A stretch of 56,569 nucleotides of DNA from Peptococcaceae bacterium (GTDB lineage: Bacteria > Bacillota > Desulfitobacteriia > Desulfitobacteriales > Syntrophobotulaceae). The DNA is taken from positions 1 to 56,569 of the forward strand of contig DUML01000036.1 in NCBI GenBank assembly GCA_012839895.1, written 5' to 3'. The notes under the pieces are model-generated. The model searched no databases. It was not told where the DNA came from and worked only from the letters and a program-made list of their open reading frames with translations. Positions 4,451 to 37,309 of the stretch are shown one piece after another. Both the position numbers and the translations under genes were made by a program. The number at the start of each line of letters is the position of its first letter. The stretch's first letter is position 1.

Positions 4451-4525
4451 GTGCTAATAGACACACAAATCCCTGATTTTAAACTAAGATTTGCTGAGAG
4501 GGAAGATGTTTCCTTAATTGCCTAA
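4451..4525 (+). pseudogene. Relic of a GNAT acetyltransferase N-terminus
   Basis: A ribosome binding site (AAGGAG at 4436-4441) and a GTG at 4451 open a 24-codon reading frame ending at TAA 4523-4525. The peptide contains FKLRFAEREDVSLIA, which closely resembles the first strand and helix of GNAT N-acetyltransferases. Nothing after the stop in any frame continues the domain. It appears to be the stump of a deleted gene just before the start of the next gene. Confidence 0.4.
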
Positions 4526-4550
4526 GGTAAATAATGGGGGAGGGGTTATT

Positions 4551-5480
4551 TTGTCCAAAGACAAGTTCTTGACTCTAGCGCTTCTGGCGGTCTTATTTCT
4601 GAATTTTTTTCTGGTAACACAGATTAATGAGCTCAAAAATCGACTGGAGAACTTAAATTATAACTACCAAAATCTCCAGTCGAGTTTTCATTCCCTTACC
4701 GAGGATGTTAATCATAGTTTAGAGCGTTTTACCAGAGAACAAAGCTGGATTACCCCTGTGCAAATAAATGAAGATAAATCCAGGGTGGATTCTGAAAAGG
4801 CCCTTGTAGTATTAAACTGGCAAATTAAGGACTTTATAGAAGGATCGGAAATAGTCCTGCACTATCGTAATACGGACTCCGAAGAATTCCGAACAATTGC
4901 GGCGGAAAGTTCAAATACCGGCTTCTTTGAGGCCAGTTTACCGCTGGAAATGAAGGCAGAGCCTTCTTGGGAGATAAACGTTTCCATTAGCGGAAAAAAA
5001 CGGCAAGCAGAAGGAGCGGCGGAAATAATTCCGGAAAAAACAGTTGAAAGGATATCGACTAAAGAACGTGACGCGGAGCAAGCTCTGCAATGCTATGTCA
5101 GTATGAAGACCAAAGGCCAGGTAAAAAGCAGCGAGCTATCTTATTTGAATTATTCTTATTTGGCCCATAAGAATTATGAATCTGTCCATGGACACGTTCG
5201 CATTGACGGAAGTAAGCACTACATCCAATTGACTGGAATGGGTATAGGAAGTAATGCCATAAAATCAATATATGCTGAGTTTTATAGCGGACAAAAGCTT
5301 ATAGACAAAAAAGAAATCCCTGCCCAGGATGTCCAAATCAAATCTAACATGCCTAAACCGGAAGGAGGAGAAATTAACCATTATAGCTTAGAATACGACT
5401 CCGGTTCCGAGAAAATAACCGGTATTATTCTTGAAGTCACCTATAGTAGCGGGGATAGTTTTAGTAAAGAAATAGTTTAG
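4551..5480 (+). CDS. Membrane-anchored coiled-coil protein, unknown function
   Basis: I do not recognise the family. The TTG at 4551 is chosen because GGGGGAGGGG sits just upstream; an earlier in-frame TTG at 4518 overlaps the GNAT relic and has no such site. The 309-residue product has one N-terminal membrane span (about 6-22), a heptad-like coiled coil (about 24-65) and a polar, probably extracytoplasmic C-terminal part predicted to be beta-rich. There are no cysteines suggesting metal or disulfide chemistry apart from one. A strong terminator follows at 5541. A role as a cell-surface or stress-sensing protein is only a guess. Confidence 0.6.
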   Translation: MSKDKFLTLALLAVLFLNFFLVTQINELKNRLENLNYNYQNLQSSFHSLTEDVNHSLERFTREQSWITPVQINEDKSRVDSEKALVVLNWQIKDFIEGSEIVLHYRNTDSEEFRTIAAESSNTGFFEASLPLEMKAEPSWEINVSISGKKRQAEGAAEIIPEKTVERISTKERDAEQALQCYVSMKTKGQVKSSELSYLNYSYLAHKNYESVHGHVRIDGSKHYIQLTGMGIGSNAIKSIYAEFYSGQKLIDKKEIPAQDVQIKSNMPKPEGGEINHYSLEYDSGSEKITGIILEVTYSSGDSFSKEIV

Positions 5481-32675: not shown

Positions 32676-34002
32676 TCAAACTAAACCCAGTAAACTTAGT
32701 AAAAACTGGATATTACCAAAGGATATTGAGGAGGTGTTTACCTCATCGATCACCTTTCTTTGAGGCGTGTAGACTTGATCGTTGCGTAGCAAAGCATCGA
32801 TCAGACGCACAAGTTTTCTAGCGGTTAAGACGAGTGCCATTTTGTGTTGATGTTTAGGAACTTCACGGTATTTTTTCTGGTAATAGCTTTTAAACTCAGG
32901 TTCGTAATTTTTTACCGAATTGGCAGTCTCAATAAGGTAATAACGAAGATATTGATTACCAGAACGAATACGTTTAGTTTCATCAGCTTCAAAAGTTCCG
33001 GATTGGTGCCTGTGCCAGGTAATACTTAGCTAAAGAAGCTTGATCTTTAAATCTGTTAATATCACCGATTTCAGCAAGTTTTCCGGCAGAATAAACAAGG
33101 CCAATTCCAGGAATAGTCTTTAAAGTATTAGGAATGCCATCCAATAGTTTCTCGATAGCCTTATCCAATTGCTTAATCTGTGCTTTAAGGCTACGGATGG
33201 TCTCAATGGAAGTAGCCAGAAGGATGTCAATAGAATCTTCTACACACTTAGAAAGACGGTAGGAAGATCTGGCAGCATTCTGGATACTCTTGGCGACCTG
33301 CTCAGGGTCAGGGAAACGGTTTTTCCCTTTCTCCCGAAGGAATTCAGCAAGAGAAGAGATATCCATCGAACTAATTTCTTCAATGCTAAATTGTTCAAGA
33401 AAAAGTTCCATTATGGCATTGCCAAACACAGAGCTGTCTACTTCCGAAGTAAAAGCACTGCATTTAAAAAACAAATTATTAAGGAAGTATTGCTTTTCCC
33501 GGACTAAATTGTGAGTAATATGGTAGCGCATCCGAGTTAAACGCTGCAGAGCGATATATTGTTCCTGCATAATCATGGTTAAAGGAAGCCTCCCAAAACG
33601 TAAGCGATCAGCAATGATCCAGGCGTCAATGTCATCGGTTTTATCTAAGTCTGTGTAAGCTTCTTTAAACTTACGAATCAACTTAGCATTGATGGTATAC
33701 ACCTTAGTCTGGCGTTTTTTTAAAGCTTCATCCTCATGAAGGAACATGGCCGGATGCCAGCTGTACACGGAGGTTGATTCCATACCAATCTGAATATCCT
33801 GGCAGGAATACTGATCCGCTAAAGCGATGATTTGAGAGCGTAAAAAGTTAGAACCATGAAGGTTATTTTCGACTGTGAGAGACTTTAGAGTTGCTCCTTC
33901 ATGGTCCATGATACAAACTTTGAGATCTTTAGAACTGACGTCTATAGATAGTTGGGGACTCTGTCCCCAAACCCCTGTCCTCGCCGGAGGGCAGCCGGTC
34001 AT
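32676..34002 (-). pseudogene. IS110-family transposase, frameshifted
   Basis: The open part (32989-34002, 337 codons) has the RuvC-like DEDD domain: D in LSIDVSSKDLKV, E in IGMESTSVYSW, and D/D in DKTDDIDAWIIA. It also has the start of the Tnp_20 domain (TIPGIGLVYSAGKLAEIGDI). After SLAKYY the frame goes off. The continuation QSGTFEADETKRIRSGNQYL...KMALVLTARKLVRLIDALL is present in the next frame down to a TGA at 32676-32678. Compared with the usual spacing before QSG, about eight bases are missing. The Tnp_20 part with its conserved serine is therefore lost from the translated protein. Confidence 0.85.
33952..33970. repeat. Palindrome at the transposase 5' end
   Basis: TTGGGGAC-TCT-GTCCCCAA is a perfect 8-bp inverted repeat with a 3-base loop. 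It falls in the first codons of the longest transposase frame, suggesting that this stretch is non-coding structure and the real start is further in. Confidence 0.5.
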
Positions 34003-35285: not shown

Positions 35286-35681
35286 ATGTTAGAGTGGAAA
35301 GAGGAATATGCTATTGGGGTACCGCTGATTGATGAGCAGCACCAGAAACTTTTTGAAATTGGCAATAGGCTTTATGAACTGTTAGAGAACTACATTTTAG
35401 ATGATAAGTATGATAAAATTGTGGCTATTATACAGGAATTACGGGAATATACCAAATATCACTTTGCCAGTGAAGAACAGTATATGTTGCAAATTAAATA
35501 TCCCAAGTATTTTAGCCAAAAAGTTGAGCATGACGACTTTATTGCAAAAATTGAAGAAGTAGAGCTTAAAGAAATAGATGAAAACCAAGATCAGTATATC
35601 CGTGATTTACTTGTTTTTGTTTTTAATTGGATTTTGGAGCATATTATCAAGAAGGACAAGCTCATAACTTCTTCCTCCTAG
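35286..35681 (+). CDS. Bacteriohemerythrin
   Basis: This 131-residue four-helix protein has hemerythrin iron ligands: H in IDEQHQKLF (about 19), H in YTKYHFASEEQYM with the downstream E, H in VEHDDF, and H-x4-D in ILEHIIKKD. It binds O2 reversibly at a di-iron site and in anaerobes may supply or scavenge oxygen or sense it. The start is ATG 35286 behind GAGGAG. It stands alone with a terminator at 35747. Confidence 0.85.
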   Translation: MLEWKEEYAIGVPLIDEQHQKLFEIGNRLYELLENYILDDKYDKIVAIIQELREYTKYHFASEEQYMLQIKYPKYFSQKVEHDDFIAKIEEVELKEIDENQDQYIRDLLVFVFNWILEHIIKKDKLITSSS

Positions 35682-36834: not shown

Positions 36835-36858
36835 AAAAAAAGGCCTTGAGGCCTTTTT
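36835..36858. terminator. Symmetric bidirectional terminator
   Basis: AAAAAAGGCC-TTGA-GGCCTTTTTT is a perfect palindrome with A-run before and T-run after, so it can terminate both convergent transcripts. Its right end touches the stop codon of the minus-strand selenoprotein gene. Confidence 0.85.
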
Positions 36859-37142
36859 TAAAATACGCCTTTGATTTTAAAAGATGGACCAAAAAGAGGA
36901 AGATTGGATTTTAATTCTATTTCTACGCTATCAGAGACTGAGAGTTCTTTATCTATGAATATTTTGACACCTTCATGTTCATATTGATGAAATTTTTCTG
37001 TCGATTCGGGTTCAGCGCTGACCTCAGACCAGAGGTATTTGGCAAAACCGGCTCAAGTACGACAAACAACCTGCTTGATTATTAAATTATTACCTTTCTT
37101 GCGGATAATATCGAGTGTTTTAGCGTTAATAATGAAATTCAA
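36858..37142 (-). CDS. HesB/IscA-like selenoprotein with in-frame TGA (predicted Sec30)
   Basis: Read on the minus strand from TTG 37142 (GGAGGTG at 37150-37156) to TAA at 36858-36860, the frame encodes 94 residues interrupted only by TGA at 37053-37055 (codon 30). The N-terminal part is MNFIINAKTLDIIRKKGNN, and the region around the TGA is VVCRT-U-AGFAKYLW. The C-terminal part, IFIDKELSVSDSVEIELKS followed by LFGPSFKIKG, has the HesB/IscA fold pattern. A family of HesB-like selenoproteins is known in anaerobes, with Sec at the first conserved Cys position, and this matches. A hairpin with the GGUCU loop follows the TGA. The likely role is in sulfur or iron-sulfur chemistry. The alternative is a nonsense-mutated relic. 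Confidence 0.75.
37021..37036 (-). promoter_or_regulatory. Candidate bacterial SECIS apical stem-loop
   Basis: On the minus strand, ACCTC-TGGTCT-GAGGT forms a perfect 5-bp stem whose loop contains GGUCU, the loop sequence of the E. coli fdhF SECIS recognised by SelB. It begins 16 bases after the TGA; the GGUCU lies 22 bases after the TGA, compared with 18 in fdhF as I recall it. GGTT/AACC farther out could extend the stem. Confidence 0.65.
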
Positions 37143-37156
37143 TTTTGTTCACCTCC

Positions 37157-37177
37157 ATATACCCCATATGGGTATAT
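37157..37177. promoter_or_regulatory. CsoR/CstR-type operator palindrome
   Basis: ATATACCC-N5-GGGTATAT at 37157-37177 is a perfect 8-bp inverted repeat with a 5-base spacer, resembling ATACCC...GGGTAT sites bound by CsoR/CstR-family repressors. It abuts the Shine-Dalgarno of the selenoprotein gene (37150-37156). A TATAATA box lies nearby on the minus strand. Confidence 0.45.
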
Positions 37178-37309
37178 TTATATTATATAGTTTCTTGTGC
37201 CAAAATTCAATGGTAAGATTCAAATATCTGGATTTCCATATTTATCAGTGCTAATATTAATTCATATGTAGTACTATTTAGCATCTCAATGTTGTTATTT
37301 GTAAATGTT

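What the first reader, a model, noticed from the sequence alone, without database searches (positions are those of the whole stretch)
36858..37142. Hidden HesB-like selenoprotein gene with in-frame TGA
Seen: a minus-strand frame with a good Shine-Dalgarno, TTG start and a stop touching a bidirectional terminator is interrupted only by TGA at codon 30 (37053-37055). Sequence on both sides of the TGA is coherent HesB/IscA-like protein (VVCRT-U-AGFAKYLW ... LFGPSFKIKG). Known: HesB-like selenoproteins occur in anaerobic bacteria. ORF callers would miss or split the gene. Inference: Sec replaces the first conserved Cys of the IscA metal or sulfur site.
Basis: partly seen in the sequence, partly recalled or inferred. 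Interest (0 to 1): 0.88.

Follow-up and report, generated by a model that had tools for sequence, protein, structure and literature searches.

The report
IscA-fold selenoprotein under CsoR-type control

Summary
Confirmed: window 36858-37142 (-) is a genuine TGA-containing gene. The genome has selA, selB, tRNA-Sec(UCA) and selD. The TGA is kept in 17 of 18 homologous genes from several genera, and the protein after it is as conserved as before it. A bSECIS-like hairpin lies 21 nt downstream; its CTC Leu codon is invariant (18/18, against 8-11% background use). Correction: it does not match the HesB selenoprotein family TIGR01911. It passes NF041239, "CC/Se motif family (seleno)protein", listed as a CxxU family in a 2026 review. 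The fold idea is right: the AlphaFold model (pLDDT 94) matches IscA/SufA structures, and Sec30 aligns with IscA Cys35; IscA's C-terminal CxC is missing. New: between the -10 box and the Shine-Dalgarno lies a CsoR type 2 operator-like site (TAC-N9-GTA), present before nine of these genes. In this genome the only other promoter-placed copy found with the TAC/GTA dyad intact precedes a csoR-thioredoxin operon; the csoR-copA and cobalt/nickel csoR genes lack it. Likely role: a Sec-dependent metal or sulfur carrier induced by the CsoR effector (copper or reactive sulfur; unproven). New member of a known family with a new regulatory prediction.

The parts
36858..37142 (-). Selenoprotein gene, 94 residues, TTG start, TAA stop, member of NF041239, predicted IscA/HesB fold
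37053..37055 (-). In-frame TGA, Sec30; Cys27 lies three residues before (C-x-x-U)
37021..37036 (-). bSECIS-like hairpin ACCUC-UGGUCU-GAGGU; loop starts 21 nt after the UGA, G at loop position 2
   Evidence: criteria from PMC13188914
37150..37156 (-). Shine-Dalgarno GGAGGTG
   Evidence: read from sequence
37157..37177 (-). CsoR type 2 operator-like site ATATACCCATATGGGGTATAT (TAC-N9-GTA), 18 of 20 positions of the S. lividans consensus
37182..37187 (-). -10 box TATAAT, 17 nt from the -35 box
   Evidence: read from sequence
37205..37210 (-). -35 box TTGAAT
   Evidence: read from sequence
36835..36859 (.). Bidirectional terminator-like hairpin, shared with the convergent inositol-monophosphatase-like gene
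   Evidence: read from sequence

Best explanation
The gene makes a 94-residue selenoprotein of family NF041239 with a shortened IscA/HesB fold. The UGA at codon 30 is read as Sec by SelB with the help of the hairpin just downstream. Sec30 stands where IscA has its first cluster- or metal-binding cysteine, Cys35. The gene has its own sigma-70-type promoter with a CsoR-type operator over the start point, the same operator that precedes a csoR-thioredoxin operon in this genome and its relatives. Most likely the CsoR protein encoded next to thioredoxin represses both units, and release by its effector (Cu(I) or reactive sulfur species) induces a Sec-based carrier that binds or hands over a soft metal or sulfur, kept reduced by thioredoxin. 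Shown by computation: gene, family, conserved TGA, Sec machinery, fold match, operator match. Inferred: Sec insertion in vivo, CsoR binding, the effector, the biochemical role. My odds for the layers: selenoprotein 0.95, IscA fold 0.9, CsoR-type control 0.8, metal or sulfur carrier 0.4.
For: NF041239 at 42.2-42.9 bits against a cut-off of 40, and matched by all ten aligned homologues. selB 379 bits, selA 574, selD 387 (itself with a TGA), tRNA-Sec with anticodon tca. TGA in 17 of 18 homologous genes; pN/pS 0.53 before and 0.46 after it. CTC at the SECIS Leu codon in 18 of 18, while CTC is 11% of Leu codons elsewhere in these genes and 8% in the window's long ORFs. AlphaFold pLDDT 94.2; the best PDB matches are IscA/SufA/Fe-S biosynthesis proteins. 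Operator 15-19 of 20 before nine genes of this family including this one, reached by 0-1 of 1000 shuffles of each upstream region. Of 16 genome sites within one mismatch of ATACCCNNNNNGGGTAT, this gene has the only exact one; of the 15 inspected, only this gene and csoR-trx have the site outside long ORFs at a promoter with the TAC/GTA dyad intact. csoR-trx operons in nine genomes carry the site (12-17 of 20, always TACCC...GGGTA or near it); csoR-copA genes do not.
Against: Hairpin covariation is not significant (53 of 500 shuffles as high), so SECIS rests on sequence conservation and rule match. Sequence comparison with IscA alone is weak (hhalign probability 0.7%) and Pfam has no hit; the fold match at Z 7.3 is below the level the tool calls safe, though unrelated folds reach only Z 2.1. 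The Desulfosporosinus and Alkalibacter homologues lack the operator, and most of them lack Cys27. The palindrome was spotted by eye before it was scored. No experiment supports binding, effector or function.
Confidence: 0.6

Rival explanations
1. A CxxU thiol/selenol redox enzyme: Cys27 and Sec30 form a selenenylsulfide reduced by thioredoxin; no metal or cluster is bound.
For: C-x-x-U in the own clade; the family is listed as CxxU in PMC13188914; apparent co-regulation with thioredoxin.
Against: Cys27 is absent in most Desulfosporosinus homologues and in Alkalibacter while Sec stays; the fold is that of metal/cluster carriers, not thioredoxin.
Confidence: 0.35
2. A canonical HesB-like selenoprotein of TIGR01911, acting in Fe-S cluster assembly.
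For: Same fold and same Sec column as the genome's two TIGR01911-like genes.
Against: No TIGR01911 hit; motif differs; CxC tail missing; no Fe-S genes recognised among the neighbours.
Confidence: 0.08
3. The TGA is a real stop or the gene is decaying; the downstream frame is not translated.
For: A 29-residue ORF would end there; one tandem paralogue has lost the TGA (TTA) and the Cys, so copies can decay.
Against: TGA and downstream protein conserved in 17 homologous genes over several genera; Sec machinery complete.
Confidence: 0.02
4. The upstream palindrome is an RNA hairpin or another factor's site rather than a CsoR operator.
For: It lies next to the Shine-Dalgarno and could fold in the transcript. 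Rfam found nothing, which excludes only known families.
Against: Matches the published CsoR type 2 consensus with TAC-N9-GTA, and the same kind of site precedes csoR-trx in nine genomes.
Confidence: 0.12

Closest known systems
NF041239 CC/Se motif family (seleno)protein (hypothetical protein predicted in Moorella thermoacetica; PMC13188914 Table 1)
   Same: Score above the curated cut-off; one Sec; CxxU as in the review's entry
   Different: This branch carries an LWS motif coded over the SECIS loop and a CsoR-type operator; the review and NCBI name give no fold or function
TIGR01911 HesB-like selenoprotein
   Same: IscA-type fold, Sec at the first conserved Cys position
   Different: No hit to the model; UAGF instead of UxGP; the genome has two separate TIGR01911-like genes
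IscA/SufA A-type Fe-S carriers (1r94, 2d2a)
   Same: Predicted fold, and alignment of Sec30 with Cys35
   Different: Lacks the C-terminal CxC; Sec instead of Cys; only marginal sequence similarity
CsoR type 2 operators (Streptomyces lividans, PMC3902906)
   Same: TAC-N9-GTA, 18 of 20 consensus positions
   Different: There it controls copper efflux; here csoR-trx and a selenoprotein gene, while the local csoR-copA lacks the site

Membership tests
NF041239 CC/Se motif family | Score above curated cut-off of 40 bits | tested here: met
   42.2 and 42.9 bits with Sec read as Cys; 35.1 bits in the six-frame genome search with the stop read through
NF041239 CC/Se motif family | Cys or Sec at the conserved motif column | tested here: met
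   Sec at the column of the second Cys, with Cys three residues before
TIGR01911 HesB-like selenoprotein | Score above curated cut-off of 66.35 bits | tested here: not met
   No hit at E 1; window gene not among the genome's TIGR01911 matches
Selenoproteins (bacterial) | In-frame TGA conserved in homologues | tested here: met
   17 of 18
Selenoproteins (bacterial) | Genome has selA, selB, selC, selD | tested here: met
Selenoproteins (bacterial) | bSECIS: loop 3-9 nt, stem 4-16 bp, G in first two loop bases, 16-37 nt from UGA | tested here: met
   Loop 6, stem 5, G at position 2, 21 nt; covariation not significant
Selenoproteins (bacterial) | Selenium in the protein | not testable with these tools
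   Needs 75Se labelling or mass spectrometry
IscA/HesB (PF01521) | Fold | tested here: met
   Predicted model only: Foldseek best 2d2a E 3.6e-5; VIA-align 1r94 Z 7.3, 80 residues, 3.1 A
IscA/HesB (PF01521) | Pfam score | tested here: not met
   No PF01521 hit
IscA/HesB (PF01521) | Three ligand Cys (C35, C99, C101 of IscA) | tested here: not met
   Only the first position present, as Sec; protein ends before CxC
CsoR regulon | Type 2 operator at the promoter | tested here: met
   18 of 20
CsoR regulon | Repressor binds and responds to an effector | not testable with these tools
   Needs gel shift and transcript assay

The most novel reading that the evidence does not exclude
A dedicated CsoR paralogue (C-H-C site, in an operon with thioredoxin, distinct from the copper-efflux CsoR) controls a two-unit regulon made of csoR-trx and an IscA-fold selenoprotein, forming a selenium-dependent response to copper or reactive sulfur species in anaerobic Firmicutes.
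Probability: 0.4. Interest if true: 0.65.

Novelty: new member of a known kind. Interest (0 to 1): 0.45.

Why it matters
NF041239 is listed among selenoproteins with no function. A fold, a likely active residue and a specific regulator give it a first testable role: does it handle metal or sulfur under copper or polysulfide stress? In the papers searched I found no selenoprotein described as controlled by a CsoR-family repressor (an open-access library only, so this is weak evidence of novelty).

Tried and rejected
TIGR01911 membership (no hit). Rfam on the window (no hit) and PHROGs (no hit). PDB sequence search with the profile gave only chance matches such as RNase H2 subunit B. Gene neighbours: only a convergent inositol-monophosphatase-like gene is widely shared, uninformative. 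Two Sphingobacterium loci are unrelated long proteins matched by a short peptide. Sec-to-Cys swap in near homologues: none found. Covariation in the SECIS stem: not significant. The second RF01852 hit (C9) is a tRNA-Ser. The looser pattern TACC-N7-GGTA is at chance level in the genome, 36 against 35 in the control, so only the stricter site is used. One further near match (C3:2242, spacer between rplQ- and truA-like genes) is intergenic but breaks the TAC half of the dyad, so it was not counted; one near match (C132) was not inspected.

Full report
Observation. The minus-strand frame 37142-36858 is as described: TTG start 7 nt after GGAGGTG, TGA at codon 30, TAA stop running into a GGCC hairpin. 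ORF listing does not report it because the TGA splits it.

Is the TGA read? The genome (2.84 Mb, 132 contigs, 98.7% complete) has selB (C8, above cut-off), selA (C65), selD (C61, itself with an in-frame TGA) and a tRNA-Sec with anticodon tca on C8. Homologues were found in eight of 25 genomes of the same family, own included, and, by name, in Gracilibacter, Peptococcaceae, Desulfosporosinus, Clostridium simiarum and Alkalibacter mobilis. In a codon alignment of 18 genes, 17 have TGA in the same column, and pN/pS is 0.53 before and 0.46 after it; pS is near saturation, so the ratios are probably too high. The one exception is a tandem paralogue in UBA6116 with TTA in place of TGA and Ile in place of Cys, next to an intact copy.

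SECIS. The RNA after UGA contains ACCUC-UGGUCU-GAGGU, loop starting 21 nt downstream with G at position 2, which meets the published bacterial rules. The stretch codes Leu-Trp-Ser; CTC is used for Leu in 18 of 18 although it is 8-11% of Leu codons. Pair counts show no significant covariation, as expected where the sequence itself hardly varies, so the RNA claim rests on codon-level conservation. The sequences are related, so 18 of 18 is not 18 independent events.

Family. NCBIfam gives NF041239 above its cut-off for this protein and a match in all ten aligned members. TIGR01911 does not match. A 2026 review lists NF041239 as a CxxU selenoprotein family first predicted in Moorella thermoacetica. 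So the gene is a new member of a catalogued family. The genome carries two further TGA genes resembling TIGR01911 with GUGGP motifs, below that model's cut-off in the six-frame search.

Fold. The AlphaFold model from ten sequences has pLDDT 94.2. Foldseek and VIA-align place it with IscA, SufA, DsrR and other A-type carriers, best Z 7.3 over 80 residues, with nothing unrelated above Z 2.1. The alignment to E. coli IscA puts residue 30 on Cys35 (the IscA letters were checked against PDB 1s98). That alignment has a poor score by itself. The CxC tail of IscA is absent.

Control. Upstream lies TTGAAT-N17-TATAAT, then ATATACCCATATGGGGTATAT, then the Shine-Dalgarno. The site matches the CsoR type 2 consensus ATATACCCCTNAGGGGTATAT and its TAC-N9-GTA rule in 18 of 20 positions; eight further homologues score 15-19, and shuffled upstream regions reach that in 0-1 of 1000. 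The TTA paralogue scores 13. Desulfosporosinus and Alkalibacter homologues have no such site.

Regulator. The genome has three DUF156 genes: C117 in front of thioredoxin, C40 in front of copA, C115 in front of cobalt/nickel transport genes (neighbours named by eye). Only C117 has the operator. Of 16 near matches in the genome, 15 were inspected: this gene and csoR-trx are the only ones outside long ORFs with the TAC/GTA dyad intact; a third intergenic one (C3) breaks the dyad. In relatives, csoR-trx operons carry the site and csoR-copA genes do not. C117 keeps the C-H-C residues of copper-sensing CsoR by eye, and no NCBIfam model passes its cut-off for it, so copper and persulfide remain open. 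Co-occurrence is not strict: G002, G006 and G014 have csoR-trx with the site but no NF041239 match.

Mechanism. Established knowledge: A-type carriers bind Fe or Fe-S clusters through Cys35 and the CxC tail; CsoR-family proteins respond to Cu(I), other metals, persulfide or formaldehyde. From this the carrier reading is preferred, because Sec is kept where Cys27 is lost and the fold is a carrier fold; a redox CxxU enzyme is the main rival.

Verdict. Real selenoprotein gene, known family, fold newly suggested here, regulatory link newly predicted.

Noticed in passing
L169:1390-1725 (G000:C94) and L168:1150-1521 (G000:C131): Two further TGA-containing HesB-like genes with GUGGP motifs, resembling TIGR01911; the genome thus has three IscA-fold selenoprotein candidates.
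   Followed up: partly
L047 and L052 (G000:C61:17482-18405): selD itself carries an in-frame TGA, so selenophosphate synthetase is probably a selenoprotein here.
   Followed up: no
L088 about 4518-4871, and L079 (Peptococcaceae UBA6116): Tandem paralogue with TTA instead of TGA, Ile instead of Cys, intact SECIS loop and weakened operator: a copy that seems to be losing its selenium site.
   Followed up: partly
L085, L086, L087, L089, L090, L092: Desulfosporosinus and Alkalibacter homologues keep Sec but lack the CxxU cysteine and the operator.
   Followed up: partly
L142, upstream of csoR-copA (G000:C40): A different palindrome, CCCTCCCC-GTAT-GGGGAGGG, precedes the copper-efflux csoR, suggesting two CsoR paralogues with separate operator types.
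   Followed up: no
window 32989-34002 (-): Transposase-like ORF (IS110 type by eye).
   Followed up: no
window 35286-35681 (+): Hemerythrin-like ORF by eye.
   Followed up: no
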